A DNA stretch of 64,000 nucleotides from Prauserella flavalba (GTDB lineage: Bacteria; Actinomycetota; Actinomycetes; Mycobacteriales; Pseudonocardiaceae): contig NZ_MASU01000009.1 of assembly GCF_003202235.1 (NCBI RefSeq), forward strand, positions 312,501 through 376,500, written 5' to 3'. A model generated the notes under the pieces. It was not told the DNA's origin and ran no database searches. It was given only the letters and a program-made list of their open reading frames with translations. The first letter of the stretch is position 1, and every line of letters begins with the position of its first letter. This document shows, piece by piece, positions 15,888 to 31,316 of this stretch. The translations under genes and the position numbers were made by a program.

Positions 15888-16556
15888 TCAGGTAGCCGCC
15901 CGCCTGGTCACGGCACCGACGAGGGACAGCCCGCGCCGCGTGCCGTCGGGGTAGGAGACGCAGCCGACCACGTCGGGGCGGGTCAGCGCCGCGTCGACCA
16001 TCGGGCCGCCGCCGTGCACGAGCGTGAACGGCACGCCGTGCCTGGCGGCGAGTGCGGTGACCAGCGCGAGCGCGTGCCCGGTCTCCTCGGGTGCCTTCAC
16101 GACGACGGCGTTGCCCACGAGCGCCTGCACGAACATCGCGTACACCAGCGCGGGCGCCGGGCAGCCGCGATCGGCGAGGTTGCTGACCGGGCCGCGCAGC
16201 GGTTCCCTTCCCGCCACGAGCCCGTCGATCTGCTCGACGCAGCGGAGCGTCTCGTCGAGGCATTCGTCGAGGCCGGAATCCATGCCGGGCAGTGAGGCCA
16301 GCAGGTCCCGGTGCTCGGTCAGCGCGTCGAGCGAGGCCAGCACGCGCACCTTGCGCTCGGTGAGCGGCGCGAACGCCCACGTGCGGTGCTCGTTGAGGCT
16401 CGCGCGCACGGCCCTCGCCGCGTCGGCGGCGTCGAGCTCGGGCACGCCCTCCGGCCGGAACAGCCCGCCCCAGAAGGGCAGCGGCCTGCCGCCGTCGAAG
16501 GCTTCGGGGGCGACGGCCTCGGCCTCGCCTGCCCCCGGTTCGGCGGTGAGTGTCAT
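15888..16556 (-). CDS. Aldehyde dehydrogenase N-terminal half (truncated or stand-alone)
   Basis: A 222-residue protein resembling the N-terminal and NAD-binding part of an aldehyde dehydrogenase (PAPALVYAMFVQALVGNAVVVKAP, then HGGGPMVDAAL and VVGCVSYPDGT, which matches the usual FTGST step). It stops there, so the catalytic Cys/Glu domain of a normal 450-500 residue enzyme is absent. The start ATG at 16556 overlaps the stop of the PanE-like gene (ATGA), so the two are translationally coupled. Either a decayed enzyme or a specialised cofactor-binding subunit. The clean coupling and open frame argue against recent decay. Confidence 0.65.
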   Translation of the reverse strand: MTLTAEPGAGEAEAVAPEAFDGGRPLPFWGGLFRPEGVPELDAADAARAVRASLNEHRTWAFAPLTERKVRVLASLDALTEHRDLLASLPGMDSGLDECLDETLRCVEQIDGLVAGREPLRGPVSNLADRGCPAPALVYAMFVQALVGNAVVVKAPEETGHALALVTALAARHGVPFTLVHGGGPMVDAALTRPDVVGCVSYPDGTRRGLSLVGAVTRRAAT

Positions 16557-17563
16557 CGGGCACCTCCCTGGGCTGCGGCCAGTGCGGGCGTGGCCGTGGT
16601 GACGTGGGCGTTGAGCAGGTCGGCGAGCGCGTTCACCACGCGCAGGGTCGGCACGGCGACGTCGGCCAGTTCCGCCAGTTCCACCACGGCGGCGAGGATC
16701 GCGTCGAGCTCGAGCGGCTTGCCCTTCTCCAGGTCCTGGAGCGTGGAGGTCTTGTGCTCCCCGGTGCGCTCGGCACCGGCGAGCCTGCGCTCGATGGAGA
16801 CGTCGGTATCGACGCCCAGTGCCGTGGCGACGTCGAGCGTCTCGCGCATCATCTCCACCACGAGCGCGCGCGTGTTGTCGTGACGGCAGATCGCGGCCAT
16901 GGTCGCCCTCGCGAGCGCGCTGATGGGGTTGAACGCGATGTTGCCCATCAGTTTGACCCAGATGTCCTTGCGCAGCTCGGGTTCCACGGGGCACTTGAGC
17001 CCGCCTGCCACCATCGCGTCGGCGAACTCGGTGCAGCGGGCGGAGATCGTTCCGTCCGGCTCGCCGATGGACAGGCGCGTGCCTTCCAGGTGCCGGATCA
17101 CGCCGGGCTCGGCGATCTCGGTGGCCGCGTAGACGACGCAGCCGATGGCTCGCTCTGGCGCCATCACGGCGCTGACGGCGCCGCCGGGGTCGACGGCTTC
17201 GATGCGCCTGCCCTCGAAGGGGCCGGGCACGCCGTGGAAGTACCACCACGGGATGCCGTTCTGCGCGGCGATGAGCGAGGTTTCCGGGCCCAGCAACGGT
17301 TCCAGCAGCGGGCCCGCGCTCGCGTACTGGTTGGCCTTGAGCCCGAGGAACACGTGGTCGACGGGGCCGATCTCCGCCGGGTCGTCCGTGGCGTGCGGCG
17401 TCGCCGAGAAGTCTCCCCTCGGGCTCAGCACGCGCACTCCCGACTCGCGCATCGCCCGCAGGTGCGCGCCGCGGGCGACGAGGTGGACTTCGGCTCCCGC
17501 GCGATCGAGCGCGGCGCCGACATACGCGCCGATGGCGCCGGCACCGAGAACAGCAACTTTCAC
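16553..17563 (-). CDS. Ketopantoate-reductase-family protein, candidate oxalyl-CoA reductase (PanE2-like)
   Basis: A 336-residue NAD(P)-dependent reductase. The N-terminal Rossmann motif GAGAIGAYVG (residues 7-16) is followed by the family C-terminal helical domain with WVKLMGNIAFNPISAL. The GTG at 17563 has a GGAG upstream. The family normally reduces ketopantoate. In Methylobacterium extorquens a member, PanE2, is known to reduce oxalyl-CoA to glyoxylate, and this gene lies beside frc with a shared operator, so I infer that role. It is coupled to the aldehyde-dehydrogenase fragment and divergent from the DUF6457/ThDP genes. Plain PanE remains possible. Confidence 0.7.
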   Translation of the reverse strand: MKVAVLGAGAIGAYVGAALDRAGAEVHLVARGAHLRAMRESGVRVLSPRGDFSATPHATDDPAEIGPVDHVFLGLKANQYASAGPLLEPLLGPETSLIAAQNGIPWWYFHGVPGPFEGRRIEAVDPGGAVSAVMAPERAIGCVVYAATEIAEPGVIRHLEGTRLSIGEPDGTISARCTEFADAMVAGGLKCPVEPELRKDIWVKLMGNIAFNPISALARATMAAICRHDNTRALVVEMMRETLDVATALGVDTDVSIERRLAGAERTGEHKTSTLQDLEKGKPLELDAILAAVVELAELADVAVPTLRVVNALADLLNAHVTTATPALAAAQGGAR

Positions 17564-17679
17564 GTCTGACTCCGTTCTTGGCCGAATCTGTGCGTCGGCT
17601 CCAGCGAGAGAAGGTGTGGAGCCCGCTCGGGACAGAAGGACGGGTCGCGTCCGAGGTGGAAGGCATCTTGCCAGCAGGT

Positions 17680-17705
17680 TGTATGCAGTATACGGTATGG
17701 CAAGC
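17680..17705. promoter_or_regulatory. GntR-type operator copy 1
   Basis: GTATGCAGTATAC at 17681-17693, followed by GGTATGG. It lies in the promoter region between the PanE-like gene and the DUF6457 gene. One of five related sites, interpreted as targets of the GntR/FCD regulator at 26.7-27.5 kb. Confidence 0.7.
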
Positions 17706-17740
17706 TCCGGTCAATGGGTCCGACCCGGGAGGTGCGGTTC

Positions 17741-17986
17741 ATGGACGAACTGCGGGAATGGACGACAGCACTGTGCGCCGACCTCGGACTGGACGCCGAT
17801 CAATGCGACCACGCACTGGTTCTCGGCATGGCCCGCGACGTGGGCCGGGTCGTCGCCAGGCCGGCCGCACCCATCACCGTCTTCCTCGTCGGCATGGCCG
17901 TCGCGCGCGGTCTTCCGCCCGCCGAGGCCGCGGCGCGACTGGGCGCACTGACCGACGACTGGCCCCGATTCGACTGGCGTGACTAG
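17741..17986 (+). CDS. DUF6457-type small protein
   Basis: An 81-residue acidic protein (MDELREWTTALCADLGLD...) with the DVGRVVARPAAPITVFLVGMAVARG core seen in DUF6457 proteins. From memory, such proteins often occur near or fused to molybdenum-cofactor genes. The ATG at 17741 is preceded by GGGAGGTG; an earlier in-frame ATG at 17714 lacks this. Operator 1 lies just upstream and operator 2 just downstream. Role unknown; a link to formate oxidation through a molybdenum enzyme is speculative. Confidence 0.7.
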   Translation: MDELREWTTALCADLGLDADQCDHALVLGMARDVGRVVARPAAPITVFLVGMAVARGLPPAEAAARLGALTDDWPRFDWRD

Positions 17987-18050
17987 GGATTCGGGCGAAC
18001 GCGAATCCGGCTCTGGACAACACGTTGATCGAGGGCCACGATAACTCCAT

Positions 18051-18076
18051 ATGGTATGCAGTATGCGGTAGTCAGC
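18051..18076. promoter_or_regulatory. GntR-type operator copy 2
   Basis: GTATGCAGTATGC at 18054-18066, extended by GGTAGTC. It lies 35-45 bases upstream of the ThDP decarboxylase start, where a repressor would cover the promoter. Confidence 0.7.
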
Positions 18077-18110
18077 AAGGACTGCACGGTCTGAAGGAGT
18101 GACGACGCAC

Positions 18111-19850: not shown

Positions 19851-19868
19851 GGCGAAGGGGCTTGCATC

Positions 19869-21098
19869 ATGGGAAAAGCACTCGAGGGTGTCCGCGTCCT
19901 TGACATGACACATGTCCAGTCCGGACCGTCCTGCACGCAGATACTGGCCTGGCTCGGGGCCGACGTCGTCAAGCTGGAGGCACCGAGCGGGGACATCACC
20001 CGCAAGCAGCTGCGCGATCTGCCCGATGTGGACAGTCTGTACTTCACGATGCTGAACAGCAACAAGCGCAGCATCACGCTCAACATGAAGAGCGACGAGG
20101 GCAAGCGGATCTTCACCGAGATGCTGCCGAAGTTCGACGTGCTGGCCGAGAACTTCGGGCCCGGCGCCGTCGACCGCATGGGCTTCACGTGGGACCGGCT
20201 GCGGGAGATCAACCCCCGGCTCATCTACGCCTCCATCAAGGGCTTCGGCGAGGGCCCCTACACCCACTTCAAGGCCTACGAGGTGGTGGCGCAGGCGATG
20301 GGCGGCTCGATGAGCACCACCGGGTTCGAGGACGGGCCGCCGCTGGCGACCGGTGCGCAGATCGGCGACTCCGGCACCGGCATCCACACCGTGGCCGGCA
20401 TCCTCGCGGCCCTCTACCAGCGCGAGCACACCGGCAAGGGCCAGCGCGTCACGGTCGCCATGCAGCACGCCGTGCTGAACCTCTGCCGCGTCAAGCTGCG
20501 CGACCAGCAGCGGCTCACGCACGGCCCGCTCGCCGAGTACCCCAACGACGAGTTCGGCGACACCGTGCCGCGCTCGGGCAACGCCTCGGGCGGCGGGCAG
20601 CCGGGCTGGGCCGTCAAGTGCGCGCCCGGCGGGCCGAACGACTACATCTACGTGATCGTGCAGCCCGTCGGCTGGGAACCCATCACGAAGCTGATCGGCA
20701 GGCCCGAGCTCGCCGACGACCCGGAGTGGTCGACCCCGGAGGCCCGGCTGGACAAGCTCGACAAGATGTTCCAGCTGATCGAGGAGTGGAGCATCAACCA
20801 CGGCAAGTGGGAGGTGCTGGCGCGGCTCAACGAGCACAACATCCCGTGCGGGCCCGTGCTGTCCACCAAGGAGATCATCGAGGACTCCTCGCTGGCCGAC
20901 AACGAGATGGTGCTGTCGGTCGACCACCCCAAGCGCGGCGAGTACAAGACGGTCGGCTGCCCGATCAAGCTGTCCGACTCCGCCGTCGACGTCCGCCGCT
21001 CGCCGCTGCTGGGCGAGCACAACGAAGAGATCTACCTGAGCGAGCTGGGCCTGGACACGGACCGGTTCACCGAACTCAAGGCGAATGGAGTGATCTGA
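19869..21098 (+). CDS. frc: Formyl-CoA:oxalate CoA-transferase
   Basis: A class III CoA-transferase of 409 residues. It matches the Oxalobacter Frc as I recall it over nearly the whole length: [45 protein letters not shown]. The catalytic aspartate is Asp167 (IGDSGTG). The glycine loop that shields the intermediate reads SGGGQPGW rather than GGGGQPGW. It transfers CoA from formyl-CoA (or another donor) to oxalate, feeding the ThDP enzyme encoded 18 bases upstream. The ATG at 19869 follows AAGGGG. This is the best-supported member of the cluster and anchors its interpretation as oxalate metabolism. Confidence 0.9.
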
Positions 21099-21101
21099 GG
21101 T

Positions 21102-23237
21102 ATGCCGGCTCCAGACAAGGCCGCCGTCCGCGAGATCATCGACAAGGTACGCGCGGAGGGCCGCGACGGGCTCACCGCGCCCGAGGGCAAGCGGGTCGCC
21201 GACGCCTACGGCATCCCCACCCCGGCCGAAGGGCTCGCCACCACCGCCGACGAGGCGGCGGCACTGGCCGAGCAGATCGGCGGGTCCGTCGTCTGCAAGA
21301 TCGTCTCCCCCGACATCCTGCACAAGACCGAGGCGGGCGGCGTGCTCGTCGGCATCGACGGCCCGGCCGCGGCGCGGGAGGCGTTCGACAAGATCGTCGC
21401 CAACGCGAAGGCGTACAACGCCGAGGCCACCATCACCGGCGTGCAGGTGCAACAGCTGGTCGGCGGCGGCCAGGAAGTGATCATCGGCGCCACGAGCGAC
21501 CCGACGTTCGGCAAGATCGTCGCCTTCGGCCTCGGCGGCGTGCTCGTCGAGGTGCTCAAGGACGTCACGTTCCGGCTCGCGCCGCTCGACGCGGCCGAGG
21601 CCAGGTCGATGGTCGACGGCATCAAGGCCGCCGAGGTGCTGCACGGCGCCCGCGGCGCGGAGCCGGTGGACGTCGGCGCGCTCGCCGACGTGATCCAGAA
21701 GGTGTCCGCGCTGGTCACCGACTTCCCCGAGATCCGCGAGTTCGACCTGAACCCCGTGTTCGCGAGCGGCAGTGGGGCGGTCGCCGCCGACATCCGCATC
21801 CTCGTCGAGACCGGTGAGGTCACCGAGCCGCCCAGGTTGTCGCAGGAGGAGATCCTCGAGTCGATGACCCGCCTGATGAACCCGCGCGCGGTCGCGGTCG
21901 TCGGCGCCTCAGACCAGGAGGGCAAGATCGGCAACTCGGTGATGAAGAACCTGATCAACGGCGGCTACGCGGGCGAGATCTACCCGATCAACCCCAAGGC
22001 CGACGAGATTCTCGGGCGCAAGGCGTACAAGTCGGTGGGCGACGTGCCCGGCGAGGTGGACGTCGCGGTGTTCGCGGTACCGGCCAAGTTCGTGGCGGGC
22101 GCGCTCACCGAGTGCGGCGAGAAGGGCATCCCGGCCGCGGTGATGATCCCGTCCGGCTTCGCCGAGACCGGCAACCAGGAGCTGCAGGACGAGATCGTCG
22201 AGATCGCGCACCGGTACAAGATCCGGATGCTCGGCCCGAACATCTACGGCTACTATTACACGCCGCAGAACCTGTGTGCGACGTTCTGCACGCCCTACGA
22301 CGTCAAGGGCGGCGTCGCGCTGACGTCGCAGAGCGGCGGCATCGGCATGGCGATCCTCGGCTTCGCCCGCACCTCGAAGATGGGTGTCTCGGCGATCGTC
22401 GGCCTCGGCAACAAGTCCGATGTGGACGAGGACGACCTGCTGACCTACTTCGAGCAGGACGACAACACGCAGGCCGTCGCCATGCACCTCGAGGACCTCA
22501 AGGACGGCAGGGCGTTCGTCGAGACGGCCAAGCGCATGACCAAGAAGAAGCCGGTCGTCGTGCTCAAGGCGGGGCGCACCGCGCTCGGCGCGCGGGCCGC
22601 GAGCTCACACACGGGCGCGCTCGCCGGTGACGACAAGGTCTACGACGACATCCTCCGGCAGGCCGGCGTCGTGCGTGCGCCGGGGCTGAACGAGATGCTC
22701 GAGTACGCGCGGGGCCTTCCGCTGCTGCCCACGCCGCAGGGCGAGAACGTCGTGATCATCACCGGTGCCGGCGGCTCGGGCGTGCTGCTCTCCGACGCGT
22801 GCGTGGAAGCCGGACTGTCCCTGATGGACATTCCGCCGGACCTGGACGAGGCGTTCCGCCGCTACATCCCGCCGTTCGGGGCCGCCGGTAACCCGATCGA
22901 CATCACCGGTGGCGAGCCGCCGTCGACCTACGAGGCGACGATCCGGCTCGGGCTGGAGGATCCGCGCATCCACGCGCTGATCCTGGGGTACTGGCACACG
23001 ATCGTGACACCGCCTATGGTCTTCGCCGAGCTCACCGCGCGTGTCGTGGAGGAGGCAAGGGCGAAGGGCATCGACAAGCCGGTCGTCGCGTCGCTGGCAG
23101 GCGACACCGAGGTCGAGAAGGCCAGCGATTACCTGTTCGATCACCGAATCATCGCCTATCCGTACACGACCGAGCGGCCGGTCGCGGTGCTCGGCGCCAA
23201 GTACCGCTGGGCGAGGGCAGCAGGCCTGCTCAGCTAG
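21102..23237 (+). CDS. NDP-forming acyl-CoA ligase (acetate-CoA ligase family)
   Basis: A 711-residue single-chain ADP-forming acyl-CoA synthetase. An ATP-grasp domain comes first (about 1-235), followed by a CoA-binding Rossmann domain from about 250 (RAVAVVGASDQEGKIGN) and the ligase flavodoxin-like domains with SHTGALAGDD near residue 500. It begins 3 bases after the frc stop, so it is in the same operon. In this setting it could charge oxalate with CoA, or run in reverse on formyl-CoA to make ATP; neither is proven. The order (ATP-grasp first) is a known circular arrangement in the family. Confidence 0.85.
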   Translation: MPAPDKAAVREIIDKVRAEGRDGLTAPEGKRVADAYGIPTPAEGLATTADEAAALAEQIGGSVVCKIVSPDILHKTEAGGVLVGIDGPAAAREAFDKIVANAKAYNAEATITGVQVQQLVGGGQEVIIGATSDPTFGKIVAFGLGGVLVEVLKDVTFRLAPLDAAEARSMVDGIKAAEVLHGARGAEPVDVGALADVIQKVSALVTDFPEIREFDLNPVFASGSGAVAADIRILVETGEVTEPPRLSQEEILESMTRLMNPRAVAVVGASDQEGKIGNSVMKNLINGGYAGEIYPINPKADEILGRKAYKSVGDVPGEVDVAVFAVPAKFVAGALTECGEKGIPAAVMIPSGFAETGNQELQDEIVEIAHRYKIRMLGPNIYGYYYTPQNLCATFCTPYDVKGGVALTSQSGGIGMAILGFARTSKMGVSAIVGLGNKSDVDEDDLLTYFEQDDNTQAVAMHLEDLKDGRAFVETAKRMTKKKPVVVLKAGRTALGARAASSHTGALAGDDKVYDDILRQAGVVRAPGLNEMLEYARGLPLLPTPQGENVVIITGAGGSGVLLSDACVEAGLSLMDIPPDLDEAFRRYIPPFGAAGNPIDITGGEPPSTYEATIRLGLEDPRIHALILGYWHTIVTPPMVFAELTARVVEEARAKGIDKPVVASLAGDTEVEKASDYLFDHRIIAYPYTTERPVAVLGAKYRWARAAGLLS

Positions 23238-23269
23238 CAGGGGCAGCCACCTCGAAAACTGGAGGTCCA

Positions 23270-24778
23270 ATGGTGGATTCTTCGAAAGTACCCGTGTCGG
23301 GCTCCGCCGGGCAGACCGGCGCCGATACGGGCAAAGCCGAACGGGTGTGGCGAGCCGGCGGGCTCGATCCCATGCCGATCCGCAAGCTGCCCGACGCTCC
23401 GCCCGCGATCCACCTGCTGGGCCCGACGGTGTTCCTCGTCGCCCTCGGTGTGGGTATGGGTGAGTCGTACATGTGGCCGAGACTGGTGCTGGTCTTCGGC
23501 CCGGAGATCAGGTGGCTGTTCCTGATCGGTGTCACGCTCCAGGCCGTGGTGATGCTGGAGATGGCCCGGTACGCCATGGCGACCGGGGAGAGCATCTTCA
23601 CCGGCGCCGCCCGCGTGTTCAAACCACTGATGTGGTTCTTCTTCGCGGTGGCGATACTCGTCTATATCTGGCCGGGCCATCTCTCCGCGGGCGCCGCCGC
23701 GTTCGAGGAGATCACCGGCATACCGTGGGTGCTGACGGCGTGTATCGCGCTGGTGCTCGTCGGCGTGGTGTTCACGCTGGCGAAGGTGATCTACAACCTG
23801 CTGGAGAACGTGCTGTCGCTGCTCATCGGCGTACTGGTGGTCGGCACGGCCATCGTCGCGTCGCTGGTGGGCAGCTGGAACGACCTCGCCAGCACCATCA
23901 CCGGCATGTTCAACTTCGGCTACCTGCCGTCGGACGCGATGTCGAGCACGTGGTTCCCGATCGTGGTCGGCGCCATCGCCTTCGCGGGACCGTCGGGTAT
24001 GCAGCAGATGTGGTACACGCTGCACCTGAGGGACAGCGGCGCGGGCATGGGCGCGCACGTGCCGAAGATCCGCGGCCTGCGGCATGCCTCCGAGCAGGAG
24101 GAGATGCCCGCCCGCGGGTTCATGTTCGACACCAGCGACCCCGCCGAGATGCAGAAGTGGAAGGGCTGGCGCCGCTGGGTCACCTTCGACGCGCTGCTCC
24201 TGTTCTGGGGCATCACGATGCTGGTGACCGTCTCCTTCACCGTGCTGGCACAGGCGGCCGCGCGCGAGAACCCGAACGTGCGCAGCCTCATCGAGGGCGG
24301 TGACCGCGACGCCGCGCTGAACGCGATGTCCGACGCGTTCGCCTCGGTGGGCGGCTCGGTGCTCGGTGGCGTGTTCTTCGGTTTCATCGCACTGATCGGT
24401 CTCAACGCGACACTCGGCCTGTTCGACTCGTTCTCGCGTGGTCAGGCGGACATGACGTACTTCTTCGTGCCCGGCGCCAAGCGGTTCAAGATCTCCCACC
24501 TCTACGCGTTCTTCCTGTGGGCCGTGATCATCTTCGGCATCCTGATCCTGAACTTCGGGCCTGCCGACGGACCGAGCGGCGTGCTCGACATCCTCGCGTT
24601 CCTGTCGACGTTCGCCATGGGCGCCTACTGCGTCGTGCTGCTACTGGTGAACAACCGGATGCTGCCCAAACCGATCCGGCCGAAGTGGTGGTCGAACCTC
24701 ATCATCGGCTTCGGTGCGGTGTTCTACCTGGGCATGCTGTTCTACAGTCTCTTCCGATTCGGCGTGGTCGTGAACTAG
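23270..24778 (+). CDS. Nramp-like membrane transporter lacking the metal-site motif
   Basis: A 502-residue integral membrane protein with about eleven helices and Nramp/APC-fold character, including a hydrophilic cytosolic loop around residues 255-300. The first helix, where true Nramps have DPGN, reads LGVGMGESYMWPR, so the canonical metal ligands are missing. The ATG at 23270 has GGAGG nine bases upstream; the gene follows the acyl-CoA ligase by 32 bases. Operon membership suggests it moves an oxalate-pathway compound rather than a divalent metal. Specificity unproven. Confidence 0.72.
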   Translation: MVDSSKVPVSGSAGQTGADTGKAERVWRAGGLDPMPIRKLPDAPPAIHLLGPTVFLVALGVGMGESYMWPRLVLVFGPEIRWLFLIGVTLQAVVMLEMARYAMATGESIFTGAARVFKPLMWFFFAVAILVYIWPGHLSAGAAAFEEITGIPWVLTACIALVLVGVVFTLAKVIYNLLENVLSLLIGVLVVGTAIVASLVGSWNDLASTITGMFNFGYLPSDAMSSTWFPIVVGAIAFAGPSGMQQMWYTLHLRDSGAGMGAHVPKIRGLRHASEQEEMPARGFMFDTSDPAEMQKWKGWRRWVTFDALLLFWGITMLVTVSFTVLAQAAARENPNVRSLIEGGDRDAALNAMSDAFASVGGSVLGGVFFGFIALIGLNATLGLFDSFSRGQADMTYFFVPGAKRFKISHLYAFFLWAVIIFGILILNFGPADGPSGVLDILAFLSTFAMGAYCVVLLLVNNRMLPKPIRPKWWSNLIIGFGAVFYLGMLFYSLFRFGVVVN

Positions 24779-25327
24779 ATGGACACGACACGCCTGCTCC
24801 GGCTCGGCGAACTCGCCCTTCCCGGGTTCGTCGTGGGACTCATCGCCGGTGCCGTCGCCGGTGGGCTGGCCGGGATCGTCGGCCAGCCCATCGGCTGGGC
24901 ACTCGTCAGCATGCTCGCTCTGGGTGTACCGCTCGCCCTGCTGGGCGGCGGGTACGGACTGCTCGCCGCGTTCCGGAAGGTCCGCATCGGCGCGTTCGCG
25001 CCCGCGGCGCTGTTCTGGCTCATCGGGTTCCCGCTGGCCAGGCTGGCCCACGAGGTGCTGACGTACCTCATCCTCACCGGCGAGCCGCAGCTGCCTCCGG
25101 ACGTGCTGGGTTTCCTCGCCTACCAGGGGATCATCAGCGCGGGCTTCGCCATCGGGTTCCTGTGGCTGCACGAGCGCATCGCGCCGCGGTGGTGGAGGCG
25201 GATGGCTCCGCACAACCCGGAGGCCGCGGAGATCTACTCGGTGTACGCCGCGTACGCGAAGCACGTCTACGAACAACGGCAGGCACGGCGGCGCAGCCGT
25301 GGCCGTGCCACGACGCAGCAGCGCTGA
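24779..25327 (+). CDS. Four-helix membrane protein, partner of the Nramp-like carrier
   Basis: A 182-residue membrane protein with about four hydrophobic segments (about 13-35, 40-65, 70-95, 110-130) and a basic, Arg/Gln-rich cytosolic tail. Its ATG directly follows the stop of the Nramp-like gene with no spacer, implying coupled translation and possibly a complex. I recognise no family. A strong hairpin follows, marking the end of the oxalate operon. Confidence 0.7.
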   Translation: MDTTRLLRLGELALPGFVVGLIAGAVAGGLAGIVGQPIGWALVSMLALGVPLALLGGGYGLLAAFRKVRIGAFAPAALFWLIGFPLARLAHEVLTYLILTGEPQLPPDVLGFLAYQGIISAGFAIGFLWLHERIAPRWWRRMAPHNPEAAEIYSVYAAYAKHVYEQRQARRRSRGRATTQQR

Positions 25328-25338
25328 GCCAGGACCGG

Positions 25339-25374
25339 ACCGGCACCATCCGCCTGCACGGGCGGATGGCCGGT
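25339..25374 (+). terminator. Hairpin after the oxalate operon
   Basis: ACCGGC + CATCCGCC (25339-25344, 25347-25354) pair with GGCGGATG + GCCGGT (25361-25374) around a short loop. It lies between the four-helix protein and terC. Likely terminator; no U-tract. Confidence 0.65.
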
Positions 25375-25399
25375 CCTGCCTGCCGAGATTGGGGCGACG

Positions 25400-26404
25400 T
25401 TGAACATTCCAGTGTGGGTCTGGCTGGTGACCATCGCCAGCCTGACGGCCATCATCTGTTTCGACTTCTACCTGGTGTCCCGCAACCCGCGGCACCCGTC
25501 GCTGCGTGAGTGCACGATCTGGGTCTGCTGTTATGTGGCGCTCGCCGCGCTGTTCGGCGTCGGCGTGCTCGTGCTCGCGGGGCCACAGCACGGCGGCGAG
25601 TTCTTCGCCGGCTGGATCACCGAGTACTCGTTGTCGGTGGACAACCTGTTCGTGTTCGTGATCATCATGTCGAGCTTCGCGGTGCCGAGGGAGTACCGGC
25701 AGAAGGTGCTGCTGATCGGCATCGTCGTCGCGCTGTTGCTGCGCGGCCTGTTCATCGCCGTCGGTGCCGAGGCCATCACGCGCTTCGACTGGCTGTTCTA
25801 CGTCTTCGGCGCGTTCCTGCTCTACACGGCGTGGAAGCTGTTGCTGCACAAGGATGACGACGAGGACGAGTTCAAGGAGAACGCGGTCCTGCGTTCGGCC
25901 AAGAAGTTCCTGCCCGCCACGGACGAGTACAACGGGGCCAAGCTGACGATCCGGGTCGACGGACGCCGCCTGGTCACCCCGATGCTCATCGTGATGATCG
26001 CGATCGGGACCACGGACCTGCTGTTCGCACTCGACTCCATTCCCGCGATCTTCGGGCTCACCAGGGAGCCCTACCTGGTGTTCACCGCCAACGCGTTCGC
26101 CCTGATGGGGCTGCGGCAGCTGTTCTTCCTCATCGGGGGCCTGCTCGACCGGCTCGTGTACCTGAGCACGGGGCTGGCCGTGGTGCTCGGCTTCATCGGT
26201 CTCAAGCTGATCGCCGAGACCCTGCACCACCACGGTGTGCCGTGGGCGCCCGAGGTGCCGATCCTCGTGTCCCTCGGCGTGATCATCGGCACCCTGGCCA
26301 TCACCACCATCGCGAGCCTGCTGAAGGTCCGCAGGGACCGTTCACGGGAACTCGACGAGGCGGCGGCCTCCCGGCCGGACGTGGCCGAGGCACCGGCCGA
26401 CTGA
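25400..26404 (+). CDS. TerC family membrane protein
   Basis: A 334-residue TerC/Alx-type protein, a family associated with metal-ion (Mn2+) efflux and membrane protein metalation. Conserved acidic membrane motifs are SLSVDNLFVF (helix 3) and TTDLLFALDSIPA. About eight or nine helices, with a DDDEDEF loop in the middle. The start is a TTG at 25400; a GTG at 25412 is an alternative. M. tuberculosis has a TerC gene (Rv2723) in its lexA-hflX region, so this may be a displaced core gene. It is flanked on both sides by hairpins, so it forms its own unit. Confidence 0.87.
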   Translation: MNIPVWVWLVTIASLTAIICFDFYLVSRNPRHPSLRECTIWVCCYVALAALFGVGVLVLAGPQHGGEFFAGWITEYSLSVDNLFVFVIIMSSFAVPREYRQKVLLIGIVVALLLRGLFIAVGAEAITRFDWLFYVFGAFLLYTAWKLLLHKDDDEDEFKENAVLRSAKKFLPATDEYNGAKLTIRVDGRRLVTPMLIVMIAIGTTDLLFALDSIPAIFGLTREPYLVFTANAFALMGLRQLFFLIGGLLDRLVYLSTGLAVVLGFIGLKLIAETLHHHGVPWAPEVPILVSLGVIIGTLAITTIASLLKVRRDRSRELDEAAASRPDVAEAPAD

Positions 26405-26412
26405 CCCTGCGG

Positions 26413-26448
26413 CCGAGACCGAGCTGGCTCCGTTGCCAGCTCTCTCGG
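26413..26448. terminator. Hairpin between terC and the convergent small gene
   Basis: CCGAGA/GAGCTGGC and GCCAGCTC/TCTCGG form a nested stem with a 6-base loop. It lies between convergent stops at 26404 and 26453, so it probably terminates both. Confidence 0.7.
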
Positions 26449-26452
26449 CACG

Positions 26453-26641
26453 TCAGGACGACGTCGTGCTGGGCCGCTCCTCGGCGGCACGCTGCCGCAG
26501 GAAGTCCTCGACCTCCTCGGTGGCCTGCTGCCCGGCCCGCGCCTGAGCGGTGGCGAGGCCGAGGCCCAGCACGCGGCCGTCGGCACTGAAGCCGGCCGGC
26601 TCCTGCGTGAGGGACTTCCACAGTTCCTTCCAGGTGCGCAT
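26453..26641 (-). CDS. Small hypothetical protein with a very strong ribosome-binding site
   Basis: A 62-residue soluble, charged protein (MRTWKELWKSLTQEPAGFS...), Ala/Glu/Gln-rich in its second half. It is preceded by AGGAGGTGAT, a full complement of the anti-Shine-Dalgarno, ten bases from the ATG, which supports real and strong translation. It lies 91 bases downstream of the GntR gene on the same strand and may be co-transcribed with it. No family recognised. Confidence 0.6.
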   Translation of the reverse strand: MRTWKELWKSLTQEPAGFSADGRVLGLGLATAQARAGQQATEEVEDFLRQRAAEERPSTTSS

Positions 26642-26732
26642 CTCACAATCACCTCCTGTTCGCGCGCATCATTCACATCCCGGTGTCCGCCACGTCGCGG
26701 ACCCGGTGGTCTTGGTGGGAAAGGGCGTCTCG

Positions 26733-27479
26733 TCAGACGCCGGGCGCGGTGCGCCTGCGGCGCGACCGGACCTGTACCGGAGCGACCTCCGGCTCGGGGT
26801 TCTCGCGGCGCTGCTCCAGGTAGGACTGGCGCGTCCGCTCGGTGTGCTCGCGCATCGTGCGGGACGCCGCGTCGGCGTCGCCAGCCTCGATCGCGTCGAT
26901 GAGCCTGGCGTGCTCCTGCCACGACTGGTGGCCGCGGTGGCGGGCGATCGGCGTGTAGTACCAGCGGACCCTGCGGTCAACCTGCGACACCATGTCGAGC
27001 AGCACCTGGTTCCCGGAGAGCTCGGTGACGCAGCGGTGCAGCTCCGCGTTCGCCGCGACCATGCCGTCGATGTCGTCGGACGCCACGGCGGCCTCGCCCT
27101 GGGCACACAGCTTGCGCAGGCGGGCGACACCCTCGGCGTCGGTGTTCAGCGCCGCCAGCCGGGCCGACTCGGCCTCGAGCGCGGCCCTGACCACGAGCAG
27201 CTGGTCGACCTCCGCCTCCGTGGGCGCGTGCACGAACGCTCCGTAACCGGGGCGCAGGTCCACCCAGCCCTCGGAGTTGAGCAGCTGGAGCGCCTCGCGG
27301 ATCGGCTGGCGCGACACCCCGAGCATCTCGGCGAGCTCGCTCTCGACGAGGTGCTGGCCCGGGGCCAGCTGCCGGGAGATGATCAGCTCCTGCATCGCCT
27401 GGTAGACCCGTTCACGGAGCGGCACCGGCCGGTCGATCCGGCGGGCAGACATCTGCTGCGGCAACTCGGTCGACGGCAT
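26733..27479 (-). CDS. GntR family regulator, FCD (FadR) subfamily
   Basis: A 248-residue regulator with an N-terminal winged helix (about 18-85; LRERVYQAMQELIISRQLAPG, then LAEMLGVSRQPIREAL) and a C-terminal all-helical FCD ligand domain (about 100-225) with candidate metal-binding histidines (AELHR, QEHARLIDAIEAGD, MREH). It is the only regulator in the catabolic block. A related operator lies 63 bases upstream of its own start and four more lie at cluster promoters, so I infer autoregulation and control of the whole set, with oxalate or a pathway CoA-ester/acid as effector. The tail from about 228 is basic and probably disordered. Confidence 0.9.
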   Translation of the reverse strand: MPSTELPQQMSARRIDRPVPLRERVYQAMQELIISRQLAPGQHLVESELAEMLGVSRQPIREALQLLNSEGWVDLRPGYGAFVHAPTEAEVDQLLVVRAALEAESARLAALNTDAEGVARLRKLCAQGEAAVASDDIDGMVAANAELHRCVTELSGNQVLLDMVSQVDRRVRWYYTPIARHRGHQSWQEHARLIDAIEAGDADAASRTMREHTERTRQSYLEQRRENPEPEVAPVQVRSRRRRTAPGV

Positions 27480-27541
27480 GATGTACTCCCAACAGTCTGG
27501 ATGGCGACGCTTGGCCCGGTGTATCGGCTAATTGGTCGACT

Positions 27542-27557
27542 GCCTACAGCATACAAT
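27542..27557 (-). promoter_or_regulatory. GntR-type operator copy 3 (gntR promoter)
   Basis: Minus strand reads TTGTATGCTGTAGGC, two mismatches from copy 1 over the 13-base core. It lies 63 bases upstream of the gntR start codon. Confidence 0.6.
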
Positions 27558-27663
27558 GAGCAGATTGCCCGATCCTGGTGATGCCTATCACTACAGCGAG
27601 TGACATCGGTCTCGTCTCCTCATCTCAGGGTTGACCTTCGCTCCGGAGCGGAAACCTCGACTT

Positions 27664-27685
27664 CTGCATACAGAATACTGTATCC
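27664..27685. promoter_or_regulatory. GntR-type operator copy 4 (sucC promoter)
   Basis: ATACAG-AATA-CTGTAT (27668-27683) is a perfect 6+6 inverted repeat inside GCATACAGAATACTGTATCC, about 50 bases upstream of the sucC start. It is the most symmetric of the five copies. Confidence 0.7.
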
Positions 27686-27732
27686 TAGCGTTGTGCTGTC
27701 GGCTGTGACATGACCGATGAAGGTGGGTGCCA

Positions 27733-28902
27733 GTGGATCTGTACGAGTACCAGGCGAGGGACCTCTTCGCCGCCCATGGTGTGCCGGTGTTGCCCGGCGC
27801 CGTGGCGAGTAATCCGGAAGAAGCGCGGGCCGCCGCCGAGGAGATCGGTGGGCAGGTTGTGGTCAAGGCGCAGGTGAAGACCGGTGGCCGGGGTAAGGCC
27901 GGTGGTGTGAAGCTGGCCCAGGATCCGGCGGAGGCGCAGGAGTTGGCCGAGGCGATCCTCGGGTTGGACATCAAGGGTCATGTCACGCGTCGCGTGCTGG
28001 TGACCGAGGCGTCGGACATCGCGCAGGAGTATTACTTCTCGTTCCTGCTGGACCGGGCCAACCGGACGTTCTTGGCGATGGCCTCGGCCGAGGGTGGTAT
28101 GGAGATCGAGCAGCTGGCGCATGAGCGGCCGGAGGCGCTGGCGAAGGTGGCGGTGGACCCGATCGCGGGGGTGGACAAGGCCACCGCGACCGCGATCCTC
28201 ACCCAGGGCGGGTTCCCGGCGGAGATCCGGGAGCAGGCCGCCGAGGTGGTGGTGAAGCTGTGGGAGACCTTCGTGGCCGAGGACGCCACGCTGGTCGAGG
28301 TGAACCCGCTGGTGCGGGACCCGCAGGACAGGATCGTCGCGCTGGACGGCAAGGTCACCCTGGACGGCAACGCCGCGTTCCGCCACCCCGAGCACGAGCA
28401 GCTGGTGGACACGCAGGCCGAGGACCCGCTGGAGGCCAAGGCGAAGGCCAAGGACCTCAACTACGTCAAGCTCGACGGGGAGGTCGGCATCATCGGTAAC
28501 GGTGCGGGCCTGGTCATGTCCACCCTGGACGTGGTCGCCTACGCCGGGCAGCGTCACGGTGGGGTCAAGCCGGCGAACTTCCTGGACATCGGGGGCGGCG
28601 CCTCGGCGGAGGTGATGGCCGCCGGGCTGGACGTCATCCTCGGCGACCCCGCGGTCAAGTCGGTGTTCGTGAACGTGTTCGGCGGGATCACCGCCTGCGA
28701 CGCGGTGGCCACCGGCATCGTCGAGGCCCTCAAGATCCTGGGTGACGAGGCCACCAAGCCGCTGGTGGTCCGCCTGGACGGCAACAACGTCGAGGAAGGC
28801 CGGGCGATCCTCGACCGGGCCAACCACCCGCTGGTCACCCAGGTGGACACCATGGACAACGCGGCCGACAAGGCCGCCCAGCTCGCCGCGGCAGGAGCCT
28901 GA
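27733..28902 (+). CDS. sucC: Succinyl-CoA synthetase, beta subunit
   Basis: ADP-forming succinate-CoA ligase beta subunit, 389 residues. The ATP-grasp domain begins [19 protein letters not shown]; the C-terminal CoA-ligase domain contains [21 protein letters not shown]. The start is the GTG at 27733 with AAGGTGG about 8 bases upstream; the in-frame GTG at 27727 is too close to that site. It forms an operon with sucD. Operator 4 ties this TCA-cycle enzyme to the oxalate regulon, perhaps to supply succinyl-CoA as a primer for oxalate activation. Confidence 0.96.
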
Positions 28903-28907
28903 TCCCC

Positions 28908-29792
28908 ATGGCCATTTTCCTCAACGAGAACTCCAAGATCATCGTGCAGGGCCTGACCGGCTCGGAAGGCACCAAGCACGCCACCAAGATGCTGGCCGCC
29001 GGCTCGAACATCGTCGGCGGCGTCAACGCCCGCAAGGCCGGCCAGACCGTCACCATCGGCGGCCAAGAGCTCACCGTCTACGGCACCGTCGAAGAGGCCA
29101 TGAAGGCCACCGGCGCCGACACCTCGGTGATCTTCGTGCCGCCCAAGTTCGCCAAGGACGCCGTGATCGAGGCCATCGACGCCGAGATCGGCCTGGCCGT
29201 GGTCATCACCGAGGGCATCCCCGTGCACGACTCGGCCTACTTCTGGGCCCACGCCGTGGCCAAGGGAAACAAAACCCGGATCATCGGCCCGAACTGCCCC
29301 GGGGTGATCTCCCCGGGCAAGTCCAACGCGGGCATCATCCCCGCCAACATCACCGGCCCCGGCCACATCGGCCTGGTGTCCAAGTCCGGCACCCTGACCT
29401 ACCAGATGATGTACGAACTGCGCGACATCGGCTTCACCACCGCGGTCGGCATCGGCGGGGACCCGGTCATCGGCACCACCCACATCGACGCCCTCCAAGC
29501 GTTCGAAGCCGACCCCGACACCAAGGTCATCGTGATGATCGGCGAGATCGGCGGCGACGCCGAAGAACGCGCCGCCGACTACATCAAGGCCAACGTCACC
29601 AAACCCGTCGTCGGCTACGTCGCCGGCTTCACCGCCCCCGAAGGCAAAACCATGGGCCACGCCGGCGCCATCGTCTCCGGCTCCTCCGGCACCGCCCAAG
29701 CCAAAAAAGAAGCCCTCGAAGCCGCAGGCGTCAAGGTCGGCAAAACCCCCACCGAAACCGCCGAGCTGGCGCGCAAGGAGATCCTGCGCTGA
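28908..29792 (+). CDS. sucD: Succinyl-CoA synthetase, alpha subunit
   Basis: Alpha subunit of 294 residues. It has an N-terminal CoA-binding Rossmann domain ([21 protein letters not shown]) and, near residue 245, the phosphohistidine loop GHAGAIVSG that carries the phosphate between ADP and succinate. It starts 5 bases after sucC. A family-type hairpin (copy B) follows its stop and separates it from the convergent MFS gene. Confidence 0.97.
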
Positions 29793-29813
29793 CCCACCAC
29801 AGTGGACTCACGT

Positions 29814-29866
29814 GCAGTGAAGGCCACCATCACTGCGTTGAACGCAGTGATGGTGGCCTTCACTGC
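29814..29866. repeat. Dispersed AAGGCCACC hairpin, copy B
   Basis: 26-base perfect arms (29814-29839 and 29841-29866) around a single central base, the longest of the five copies. It contains the same GCGTT/AACGC core. It lies between the convergent sucD and MFS genes. Confidence 0.88.
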
Positions 29867-29901
29867 GGTCGGGGCAGTCACCGCAGCAGGGGTTCGCGGC
29901 G

Positions 29902-31272
29902 TCAGCGGGTCAGCAGCGGCTCCGCCAGGCCCGGCAGGGGCAGCCTGGGGCGGCCGGGCTGGCGCAGGAACCGCACCAGGCCCGCACCGGTCAGGCTCAG
30001 CACCGCCGCCACCACGAACATCACCGGGTAGCCGTCGCTGCTCACGGCGTAGCCCGCGAATGCGACACCGATCAGCCCGCCGACCGACTTGGCCCCGTAG
30101 AAGATCCCGAAGTTCGGCAGGCCGGGCTGCTCGCCGAAGTGCCCCTCGACGAGGCCGGGCAGCAGCCCGTAGCAGGCGCCCGCGGCCCCTCCGGCGAGCG
30201 CGGCGCCGAGCAACAGCAGCGGAGCGTTGCCCTGCTGACCGGAGAAGAGCAGCAGCAACTGCGCCACTCCCCCCGCGTACAACGCGACGCGCACCACGCG
30301 GCGCCGTCCGAAACGGTCGCCGGCCCAGCCCTCCGCGGTACGCGTCGCACCGCTGGCCGCGGCGAGCACGGCGAGCGCGGCGGCGCCGAACTCCGCGCTC
30401 CAGCCGCTGGCCGTCGCGAACACCGCGAGGTAGGCGATGTCGAACAGGATCACCGCGGCCAGGCACGTCACCGCGAGGTACAGCAGGCCCGACTCGGGGC
30501 AGCGGACCATCTCGGCGGCCGAGTACCGGCGGATGGGCGGGCGGTTGTTGCGCAGCCCGGGGTTCACGGACTTGTCGAGTGCCCACGCCCTCGGGTCGAC
30601 GTGCGCGGGCCACCAGTACCGCGGCGGGTCGCGCAGGATCAGCGCGGCGGCCCCCACGAGGAGCACCACGGCGAGGCCCGCCACGCCGAGGAACGCCTCG
30701 ATGGACCCCGGGCGCGCGAACTGGCCCGCCAGCACCACGAACGGGATCGAGCCGTACGCGAACGCGCCGCTCACGAAAGCCGTGCGGGCAGGCCGCTCGG
30801 GGTACCACTTGGCGACCACGCCGAGGCACGTGCCGTACACGAGCCCGGCGCCGATACCGCCCAGCACGCCGTGGTTGAGCAGCACCACGACGAAACTCGT
30901 CGAACCCCCGAGCGTCACCAGTCCCGCGGCGCACAGCGAGGCGCCGACGAACATCGTGGCGGCCGGCGCGAGCCCGAGCCTGCTGCGCAGCCGTGCCGCG
31001 GGGTAGACGGTGCCGCTCTGGCAGAGGATCCACACCGCGAGCACCCAGCCGCCCTGCGCGAGCGTCCAGCCGTGAGTGGTGCCGAGCACGGGCATGAGCG
31101 CGCCGAAGCCGTACTGGCCGACGCTGGCGACCAGCATGGCCGTCCACGCCGCCCACAGCATCCAGCGACGAGAACGGCCCAGCAGGTCGCGATCGGTCTC
31201 GCCGACGCGATACCGCCGGCCGTAGAAGTCGCGGATCTCCCTCACCGGGGGAACGAAAGACACGCCGGACAT
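29902..31272 (-). CDS. OFA-type MFS transporter (oxalate/formate antiporter family)
   Basis: A 456-residue, twelve-helix MFS carrier with oxalate/formate-antiporter character (GYGLLPGLVEGHFGEQPGLPNFGIFYGAKSVGGLIG region, GIGAGLVYGTCLG). The start is set at the ATG at 31272 (MSGVSFVPP), which has GGTGGG upstream; the ATG at 31287 has none. It is transcribed away from the miaB side, and operator 5 lies directly upstream. Import of oxalate, possibly in exchange for formate, fits both family and context. It ends convergent with sucD. Confidence 0.85.
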   Translation of the reverse strand: MSGVSFVPPVREIRDFYGRRYRVGETDRDLLGRSRRWMLWAAWTAMLVASVGQYGFGALMPVLGTTHGWTLAQGGWVLAVWILCQSGTVYPAARLRSRLGLAPAATMFVGASLCAAGLVTLGGSTSFVVVLLNHGVLGGIGAGLVYGTCLGVVAKWYPERPARTAFVSGAFAYGSIPFVVLAGQFARPGSIEAFLGVAGLAVVLLVGAAALILRDPPRYWWPAHVDPRAWALDKSVNPGLRNNRPPIRRYSAAEMVRCPESGLLYLAVTCLAAVILFDIAYLAVFATASGWSAEFGAAALAVLAAASGATRTAEGWAGDRFGRRRVVRVALYAGGVAQLLLLFSGQQGNAPLLLLGAALAGGAAGACYGLLPGLVEGHFGEQPGLPNFGIFYGAKSVGGLIGVAFAGYAVSSDGYPVMFVVAAVLSLTGAGLVRFLRQPGRPRLPLPGLAEPLLTR

Positions 31273-31287
31273 ACACCCACCCGCCAT

Positions 31288-31316
31288 TGTGCATACAGTA
31301 TGTAGTAGCCAGTATG
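31288..31316. promoter_or_regulatory. GntR-type operator copy 5 (MFS promoter)
   Basis: GCATACAGTATG at 31291-31302, extended by TAGTAGCC and a second CAGTATGG. It sits 16-45 bases upstream of the MFS start codon. Confidence 0.7.

What the first reader, a model, noticed from the sequence alone, without database searches (positions are those of the whole stretch)
15888..31316. Five matching operators define an oxalate regulon under one GntR/FCD regulator
Related sequences occur in the promoter regions of the PanE-like/DUF6457 pair (17681), the ThDP enzyme (18054), gntR itself (27542, minus), sucC (27668) and the OFA-type MFS gene (31291). The core is G-N-A-T-R-C-A-G-T-A-T; I saw no other copies in the window. 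All target genes fit one pathway: uptake, CoA activation, decarboxylation, reduction to glyoxylate and succinyl-CoA supply. That gives a self-contained regulated system with its own regulator.
Basis: partly seen in the sequence, partly recalled or inferred. Interest (0 to 1): 0.8.

Follow-up and report, generated by a model that had tools for sequence, protein, structure and literature searches.

The report
Conserved GntR regulon for oxalate use
Five matching DNA switches in this soil actinomycete mark a set of genes that look built for feeding on oxalate; the same switches sit before the same genes in dozens of related genomes and travel with one GntR regulator, and they also reach a distant gene pair that makes NADPH.

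Summary
The five sites are real. A weight matrix trained on other genera finds exactly these five places in the window (21.9-33.4 bits; next -0.7). The exact core occurs 5 times in the 8.09 Mb genome: four here, the fifth before pntAB (NAD(P) transhydrogenase), so the regulon is not self-contained. In 56 clusters the core (at most 1 mismatch) lies upstream of the ThDP gene in 51 of 56, panE 49 of 49, sucC 32 of 36, but before frc in 0 of 54, ACD 0 of 52, sucD 0 of 26. Of 150 family genomes, 59 of 60 with gntR hold at least two exact cores, against 13 of 90 without. The operator is a 7-bp-phased array of GYATRC hexamers, reminiscent of NanR. Corrections: the ThDP enzyme is not a canonical oxalyl-CoA decarboxylase; the MFS protein is below the oxalate/formate family cut-offs; the gntR site has two mismatches to the written core. 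Binding, effector and enzyme activities are untested. Verdict: a well-conserved FCD-GntR regulon, very probably for oxalate; a new member of a known kind.

The parts
17675..17699 (+). Operator 1, between panE (-) and DUF6457 (+): GTATGCA-GTATACG-GTATGGC heptads
   Evidence: 26.9 bits; core within 1 mismatch upstream of panE in 49 of 49 clusters
18041..18065 (.). Operator 2, upstream of the ThDP-frc-ACD operon
   Evidence: 33.4 bits; 51 of 56 clusters
27536..27560 (.). Operator 3, gntR-proximal, variant TGTATGC-TGTAGGC
   Evidence: 2 mismatches to the core; 23.7 bits with the outside matrix; block conserved in 25 of 48 gntR upstreams
27660..27684 (.). Operator 4, upstream of sucC (CATACAGAATACTGTAT)
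   Evidence: 21.9 bits; 32 of 36 clusters
31285..31309 (.). Operator 5, upstream of the MFS gene
   Evidence: 30.1 bits; MFS upstreams were not in the training set; 5 of 5 clusters with an MFS match of 55% identity or more; of the 31 weaker MFS matches 16 had the core within 1 mismatch (counted)
26733..27479 (-). gntR: GntR HTH + FCD regulator, 248 aa
   Evidence: Pfam PF00392 and PF07729 above gathering; 17 sequences aligned, window included
16553..17563 (-). panE-like reductase, candidate oxalyl-CoA reductase
   Evidence: TIGR00745 197.8 bits, cut-off 141; homologs beside oxlT/pntAB and beside ThDP-frc-sucCD in proteobacteria
17714..17986 (+). DUF6457 protein
   Evidence: PF20058
18099..19850 (+). 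ThDP enzyme of the OXC/HACL clade, not canonical OXC; candidate oxalyl-CoA decarboxylase
19869..21098 (+). frc, formyl-CoA:oxalate CoA-transferase family
   Evidence: TIGR03253 679.5 bits, cut-off 504; 57% identical to E. coli Frc
21102..23237 (+). NDP-forming acyl-CoA ligase (ACD type)
23270..26404 (+). Nramp-type transporter, ORF without a Pfam match, TerC family protein; probable tail of the ThDP transcription unit
   Evidence: spacing; Nramp passes the NCBIfam but not the Pfam cut-off, TerC passes Pfam; no core upstream of Nramp (0 of 42) or TerC (0 of 35)
27727..29792 (+). sucCD, second copy of succinyl-CoA ligase genes under operator 4
   Evidence: other copy on contig C2, 99.7% identical over 2.04 kb
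29902..31287 (-). MFS transporter, distant from the OFA and lactate MFS families
   Evidence: below all three NCBIfam cut-offs

Best explanation
The five sites are operators of the FCD-type GntR protein encoded at 26733-27479, which most likely represses its targets until an oxalate-derived signal releases it. The targets make a route for growth on oxalate. An MFS carrier imports it; Frc makes oxalyl-CoA; a ThDP enzyme of the OXC/HACL clade most likely decarboxylates it to formyl-CoA; and a PanE-type enzyme reduces a share of it to glyoxylate for biosynthesis. That reductive branch consumes the CoA thioester and NADPH. This would explain why a second sucCD copy (CoA donor from ATP) and, elsewhere in the genome, pntAB (NADPH from NADH) carry the same operator. 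Shown here: the sites, their conservation, their placement and their co-occurrence with gntR. Inferred: that GntR binds them, repression, the effector, and each enzyme's substrate.
For: Outside-trained matrix hits exactly the five sites. Exact core in upstream regions of 56 clusters: 118 in 55 kb against 16 in 1,015 kb elsewhere, reversed core 0 and 0. Per-gene counts with internal negatives. Operators persist where panE or sucCD are relocated. gntR and ThDP co-occur: both 56, gntR only 4, ThDP only 2, neither 88 of 150. G010 has the ThDP gene but no gntR and no core beside it. Three of four genomes with gntR but no ThDP have the exact core 80-220 bp from gntR. Upstream of pntA an exact core lies in 7 of 15 ThDP+ and 0 of 15 ThDP- genomes (30 of the 118 genomes with a pntA match were examined), and a second pntAB lies inside the cluster in two genomes. 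Independent panE-pntAB neighbourhoods occur in Azospirillum (with oxlT) and Skermanella. A Phyllobacterium plasmid joins GntR, sucCD, an acetate-CoA-ligase-family gene, oxlT, ThDP, frc and a PanE homolog. In C. necator, deleting a PanE-type gene slowed growth on oxalate and deleting frc-oxc abolished it (PMC7486775, passages).
Against: No binding, expression or enzyme data. The ThDP enzyme lacks the equivalents of OXC residues Y120, E121, Y483 and S553. The MFS protein misses the family cut-offs. The core is missing at 1 mismatch in 14 of 48 gntR upstreams, and many of the 34 positives are shared with divergent sucC or panE. In G020 and G058 pntA lacks the operator. G103 has ThDP and operators but no gntR was found, though that assembly is fragmentary. 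G109 has gntR but no core. G010, without gntR, still has 2 exact cores elsewhere. Four ThDP upstreams in clusters that keep gntR (L096, L098, L103, L104) have no core within 1 mismatch, and the same four lack it upstream of sucC. The reversed core at 1 mismatch was also found in 6 of 56 ThDP and 6 of 36 sucC upstreams.
Confidence: 0.8

Rival explanations
1. Same regulator and operators, but the pathway mainly burns glyoxylate or glycolate: PanE oxidises glyoxylate to oxalyl-CoA, the ThDP enzyme decarboxylates it, Frc/SucCD recover the CoA ester as ATP, and the signal is glyoxylate.
For: The C. necator PanE-type reaction is described as reversible and the frc-oxc route takes part in glycolate use (PMC7486775, passages). 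In Haloechinothrix alba the orphan gntR lies beside an IclR/BhcR-like regulator gene.
Against: OxlT is annotated beside the same gene set in Phyllobacterium and beside PanE-pntAB in Azospirillum. Frc passes the formyl-CoA transferase model named oxalate_frc.
Confidence: 0.15
2. The operators belong to a different transcription factor encoded elsewhere, and gntR is only a target or a neighbour.
For: The gntR-proximal site departs most from the written core. No binding was tested. G103 has operators without a detected gntR.
Against: Tight co-occurrence (59 of 60 against 13 of 90), cores next to three of four orphan gntR genes, loss of both at the G010 cluster, and no other regulator among the 12 window proteins scanned.
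Confidence: 0.08
3. The conserved 7-bp repeats are promoter elements or shared ancestry rather than operators.
For: The sites lie near start codons and the genomes are related.
Against: They appear before non-homologous genes, follow relocated genes, stand out from diverged flanks, are rare in genomes without gntR and rare in the rest of the cluster.
Confidence: 0.02

Closest known systems
NanR of E. coli (FCD-type GntR, sialic acid regulon)
   Same: GntR-type regulator; several operons share an operator of tandem hexamers; three dimers bind (GGTATA)3 cooperatively (PMC8012715, abstract and passages). Our GntR scores 95 bits to the NanR model, below its cut-off of 260.
   Different: Hexamer is GYATRC at 7-bp phase with a mirror axis near the centre. 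Targets, and presumably the effector, differ. Protein-DNA stoichiometry here is unknown.
frc-oxc-apbA2 (PanE2-type) oxalate system of Cupriavidus necator
   Same: Frc, a ThDP decarboxylase and a PanE-type CoA-acylating glyoxylate dehydrogenase in one neighbourhood, the last found through M. extorquens panE2 (PMC7486775, passages). In C. metallidurans a 63% identical ThDP protein, Frc, PanE, SucCD and GntR genes lie together.
   Different: Here the ThDP enzyme is outside canonical OXC. The passages read name no regulator, operator or transhydrogenase link. Whether C. necator 'oxc' is of this ThDP family was not checked.
2-Hydroxyisobutyryl-CoA lyase cluster of Actinomycetospora chiangmaiensis
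   Same: Actinobacterial ThDP lyase with a neighbouring GntR gene (PMC7176365, passages). Chains named 2-hydroxyacyl-CoA lyase, recalled to be this enzyme, are the best PDB match to our ThDP protein (270 bits).
   Different: Its cluster holds a 2-HIBA-CoA ligase and dehydrogenases; no Frc/SucCD/PanE set in the passages read. Our protein scores 361 bits against the lyase model's cut-off of 600.

Membership tests
GntR family, FCD subfamily | N-terminal GntR winged HTH | tested here: met
   PF00392 71.3 bits, gathering 27
GntR family, FCD subfamily | C-terminal FCD domain | tested here: met
   PF07729 105.1 bits, gathering 24.3
GntR family, FCD subfamily | FCD metal ligands (recalled: Asp/Asn...His...His...His) | tested here: inconclusive
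   N144, H148, H190 and H212 invariant in 17 sequences; metal binding itself not testable
NanR-type tandem-repeat operator | Two or more hexamer repeats at fixed phase | tested here: met
   7-bp phased hexamers; NanR needs two or more repeats
NanR-type tandem-repeat operator | Several dimers bound cooperatively | not testable with these tools
   needs footprinting or ultracentrifugation
Oxalyl-CoA decarboxylase (TIGR03254) | Model cut-off 739.4 bits | tested here: not met
   232 bits; 0 of 16 matches in the own genome pass
Oxalyl-CoA decarboxylase (TIGR03254) | Residues E56, Y120, E121, Y483, S553 (listed in PMC10192776) | tested here: not met
   Equivalents placed by eye on the E. coli OXC sequence: E56 kept; YE reads LQ; Y483 and S553 positions read I and N in the window protein; YE is LQ in all five ThDP sequences aligned, window included
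Formyl-CoA transferase (TIGR03253) | Model cut-off 504.2 bits | tested here: met
   679.5 bits
Formyl-CoA transferase (TIGR03253) | Q17, D169 and the glycine loop (G259, G260) | tested here: met
   conserved in the alignment with E. coli Frc, positions placed by eye (residue list)
PanE2-type oxalyl-CoA reductase | PanE/ApbA fold family | tested here: met
   TIGR00745, PF02558 and PF08546 above cut-off
PanE2-type oxalyl-CoA reductase | Oxalyl-CoA reduction activity | not testable with these tools
   context only
Oxalate/formate (OFA) MFS transporter | TIGR00890 and TIGR04259 cut-offs | tested here: not met
   119 of 375 and 90 of 335 bits

The most novel reading that the evidence does not exclude
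A widespread oxalate module without canonical OXC, in which an unnamed ThDP family does the decarboxylation. In Pseudonocardiaceae it is run by one FCD regulator that reads a 7-bp-phased multi-dimer operator. It couples catabolism to redox supply (pntAB) and CoA-donor supply (a second sucCD, nearly identical to the genome's other copy in five near genomes), and in some genera to formate dehydrogenase with its Mo/W cofactor genes.
Probability: 0.5. Interest if true: 0.62.

Novelty: new member of a known kind. Interest (0 to 1): 0.5.

Why it matters
Oxalate is abundant in plants and soil, and regulation of its use in actinomycetes appears little described in the open-licence papers searched. Searches found no paper with all terms; the listings (20 of 30 papers shown; 1; 6; 10 of 23) showed no title on an actinobacterial oxalate regulator. 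Most of those papers were seen as listings only; two oxalotrophy papers searched by term held 0 occurrences of 'regulator' (PMC12927642) and 'regulat' (PMC10192776). A testable regulator-operator pair, a candidate decarboxylase family outside OXC and a predicted NADPH link give direct experiments, and the operator offers a way to find further members of the pathway.

Tried and rejected
A 14-base degenerate pattern with one mismatch was too noisy as a genome-wide test; the exact core replaced it. Exact cores in near relatives judged chance or unexplained: G014:C1:4936528 and G058:C34:39881 (no fitting ORF), G044 and G077 (inside a coding region), G041:C5:49149. G058:C34:216149 lies in a moaA-like ORF (by eye), with a 1-mismatch core before its likely start; not counted. 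Most exact cores outside the clusters in the other genomes were not annotated. Own-genome looser hits at C5:522572, C11:46702 and C13:701587 have no clear target; C5:850821 lies 23 bp before an ORF that reads like an MFS carrier by eye, not scanned. Formate dehydrogenase as a target in the own genome: no match at E <= 1e-150. In relatives the core within 1 mismatch precedes it in 4 of 18 FDH loci checked; three further loci holding only C-terminal pieces were left out. The truncated aldehyde-dehydrogenase-like ORF after panE matched no NCBIfam model and only one other locus (L059) at E <= 1e-10. Cupriavidus, Methylobacterium and Nonomuraea plasmid records without annotation were read only by tblastn; the Caballeronia record was not read further. 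A structure model of GntR was not obtained.

My first pntA scan ignored strand for minus-strand loci and missed sites; one search is the corrected version.

Rows left out of counts: of 58 ThDP+ genomes, G049 and G147 were not among the 55 fetched (with the window, 56 clusters) and were read later. One search trained on 47 of the 56. In one search genes absent from a locus, upstream regions under 200 bases (three gntR rows) and MFS matches under 55% identity (31 of 36) were left out; 16 of those 31 had the core within 1 mismatch (counted).
Full report
WHAT WAS CHECKED. The window is 64 kb of an 8.09 Mb genome. Its close relatives among named records are Prauserella species: the gntR protein is 99% identical in Prauserella endophytica. 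The exact core occurs five times in the whole genome, four of them in this window; the reversed core occurs once.

INDEPENDENT TEST OF THE SITES. I located the window's proteins in 55 other genomes carrying an ortholog of the ThDP enzyme at 76-98% identity. A weight matrix was trained on upstream regions of the ThDP, panE, sucC and gntR genes from genera outside the window's nearest relatives (153 regions, expected 146 sites; the fit was started from ATACAGTAT). Scanned over the window it gave five hits between 21.9 and 33.4 bits, exactly at the five named places; the sixth scored -0.7. The best of 100 first-order Markov windows was 17.9 (mean of the best scores 5.6). The MFS site (30.1) and the pntA site (24.9) belong to genes that were not in the training set.

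CONSERVATION WITH INTERNAL CONTROLS. With at most one mismatch the core lies in the upstream region (300 bases plus the first 50 of the gene) of the ThDP gene in 51 of 56, panE in 49 of 49, sucC in 32 of 36, gntR in 34 of 48, and the MFS gene in 5 of 5 clusters with a match of 55% identity or more. It lies upstream of frc in 0 of 54, ACD 0 of 52, Nramp 0 of 42, sucD 0 of 26 and TerC 0 of 35. The reversed core at one mismatch gave 6, 0, 6, 0 and 0 for the first five genes and 1 for ACD. Exact cores: 118 in 55 kb upstream against 16 in 1,015 kb elsewhere; reversed core 0 and 0. In several genera panE lies downstream of gntR, or sucCD is divergent from the ThDP gene; the operators mostly go with the genes, the exceptions being the ThDP-sucC intergenic regions of four clusters. 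Many gntR positives are shared intergenic regions. The gntR-proximal variant block is separately conserved in 25 of 48 upstreams at no more than 4 of 16 mismatches, against 0 of 48 shuffles.

LINK TO GNTR. In 150 family genomes gntR (E <= 1e-40) is in 60 and the ThDP ortholog in 58; both 56, gntR only 4, ThDP only 2. Genomes with gntR have a mean of 4.55 exact cores (one outlier, G130, has 25; 4.20 without it) against 0.62 without gntR; the reversed core averages 1.03 and 0.69. At least two cores: 59 of 60 against 13 of 90 (phylogeny not corrected). G010 has the ThDP gene without gntR and without a core beside it, though it has 2 exact cores elsewhere. Orphan gntR genes in G039, G111 and G144 have an exact core nearby; G109 has none. 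Against this, G103 has operators but no gntR was found in its fragmentary assembly.

OPERATOR ANATOMY. The consensus is TGCATAC-A-GTATGC with further GTA-type elements 7 bp out on both sides, that is, four GYATRC-like hexamers with one-base spacers and a mirror axis in the middle. Tandem hexamers bound by several dimers are known for the GntR-type regulator NanR (PMC8012715; abstract and passages read). That GntR here binds as several dimers is inference.

BEYOND THE WINDOW. The fifth exact copy starts 24 bp before the first possible start of pntA, which is followed by pntB; pntA passes a curated model, pntB's best model is below its cut-off. I examined 30 of the 118 genomes with a pntA match: an exact core lies upstream in 7 of 15 ThDP+ genomes (7 of the 9 nearest, own included) and in 0 of 15 ThDP- genomes. 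In G081 and G049 a second pntAB sits in the cluster with the operator between it and an MFS gene. In Azospirillum ramasamyi a PanE homolog lies between oxlT and pntAB, and in Skermanella GntR, PanE and pntAB are neighbours. In some relatives the core also precedes a formate dehydrogenase alpha gene (G114, G094, G066 and G037, one mismatch each), a MobA-like gene in G081 that is followed by an ORF resembling the aldehyde-ferredoxin-oxidoreductase-like protein scanned from G114, and a TupA-like tungstate-binding protein gene after a MoeA-like one in G039. Several of these names rest on scores below curated cut-offs. FDH as a target is not general: 4 of 18 loci.

ENZYMES. Frc passes its curated model and is 57% identical to E. 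coli Frc. The ThDP protein's best PDB matches are 2-hydroxyacyl-CoA lyases and related oxalyl-CoA decarboxylase/HACL entries (270 and 266 bits). It is 26% identical to E. coli OXC and keeps the catalytic Glu. The Y120-E121 position reads LQ in it and in its relatives from Cupriavidus, Phyllobacterium, Streptomyces and Nonomuraea, and the Y483 and S553 equivalents are also absent (residue list from PMC10192776, passages and one section; positions placed by eye). No protein in the own genome passes the OXC model. Yet this ThDP family sits with frc, sucCD, an acetate-CoA-ligase-family gene, a PanE homolog and an annotated oxlT in Phyllobacterium, and with frc, sucCD, an acetate-CoA-ligase-family gene and an OFA-family MFS gene in Streptomyces fungicidicus. 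A decarboxylase role is therefore the likeliest reading, but unproven.

HOW IT MOST LIKELY WORKS. Repressor off on oxalate: uptake, CoA transfer by Frc, decarboxylation giving formyl-CoA that primes the next round, and reduction of some oxalyl-CoA to glyoxylate. Every reduced molecule loses its CoA thioester and costs reducing power. SucCD under the operator would replace the CoA donor at the cost of ATP, and the transhydrogenase would supply NADPH. Genetics in C. necator fit: loss of a PanE-type gene slowed growth on oxalate, loss of frc-oxc abolished it (PMC7486775, passages). The cofactor of the reductase and the direction of flux are inferred.

SIDE RESULT. The cluster sucCD copy is 99.7% identical at DNA level to the other copy in the same genome over just the 2.04 kb of the two genes. 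Values in eight relatives: 100, 99.9, 99.9, 98.2, 86.9, 84.7, 78.5 and 77.7%. Between species the SucC proteins differ far more (71-90% identical to the window's). This suggests repeated gene conversion in the near genomes, with promoters kept different.

VERDICT. A real, well-conserved FCD-GntR regulon, very probably for oxalate. It is a new member of a known kind of regulation, with an unproven decarboxylase and a new predicted link to NADPH supply.

Noticed in passing
window 27727-29792 and own contig C2:655005: Two sucCD copies almost identical (99.7%) only over the coding pair, as in four near relatives (98.2-100%) while species differ; looks like gene conversion and may explain contig ends inside sucC in other assemblies.
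   Followed up: partly
window 15888-16565 (-): Short aldehyde-dehydrogenase-like ORF (by eye; no NCBIfam match) overlapping the end of panE; found in only one other locus (L059), possibly a decaying gene.
   Followed up: partly
window 23270-26404: Nramp-type and TerC-type membrane proteins end the ThDP transcription unit and are kept in many relatives; why metal-transport-like genes ride with oxalate genes is unexplained.
   Followed up: no
G130: This genome has 25 exact cores, far above all others (next highest 8); a repeat element or an expanded regulon.
   Followed up: no
   Followed up: partly
L222 (G147) 2024-2053: Strong core directly before an aldehyde dehydrogenase gene of the succinate-semialdehyde type (below the model cut-off); possible extra regulon member.
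   Followed up: no
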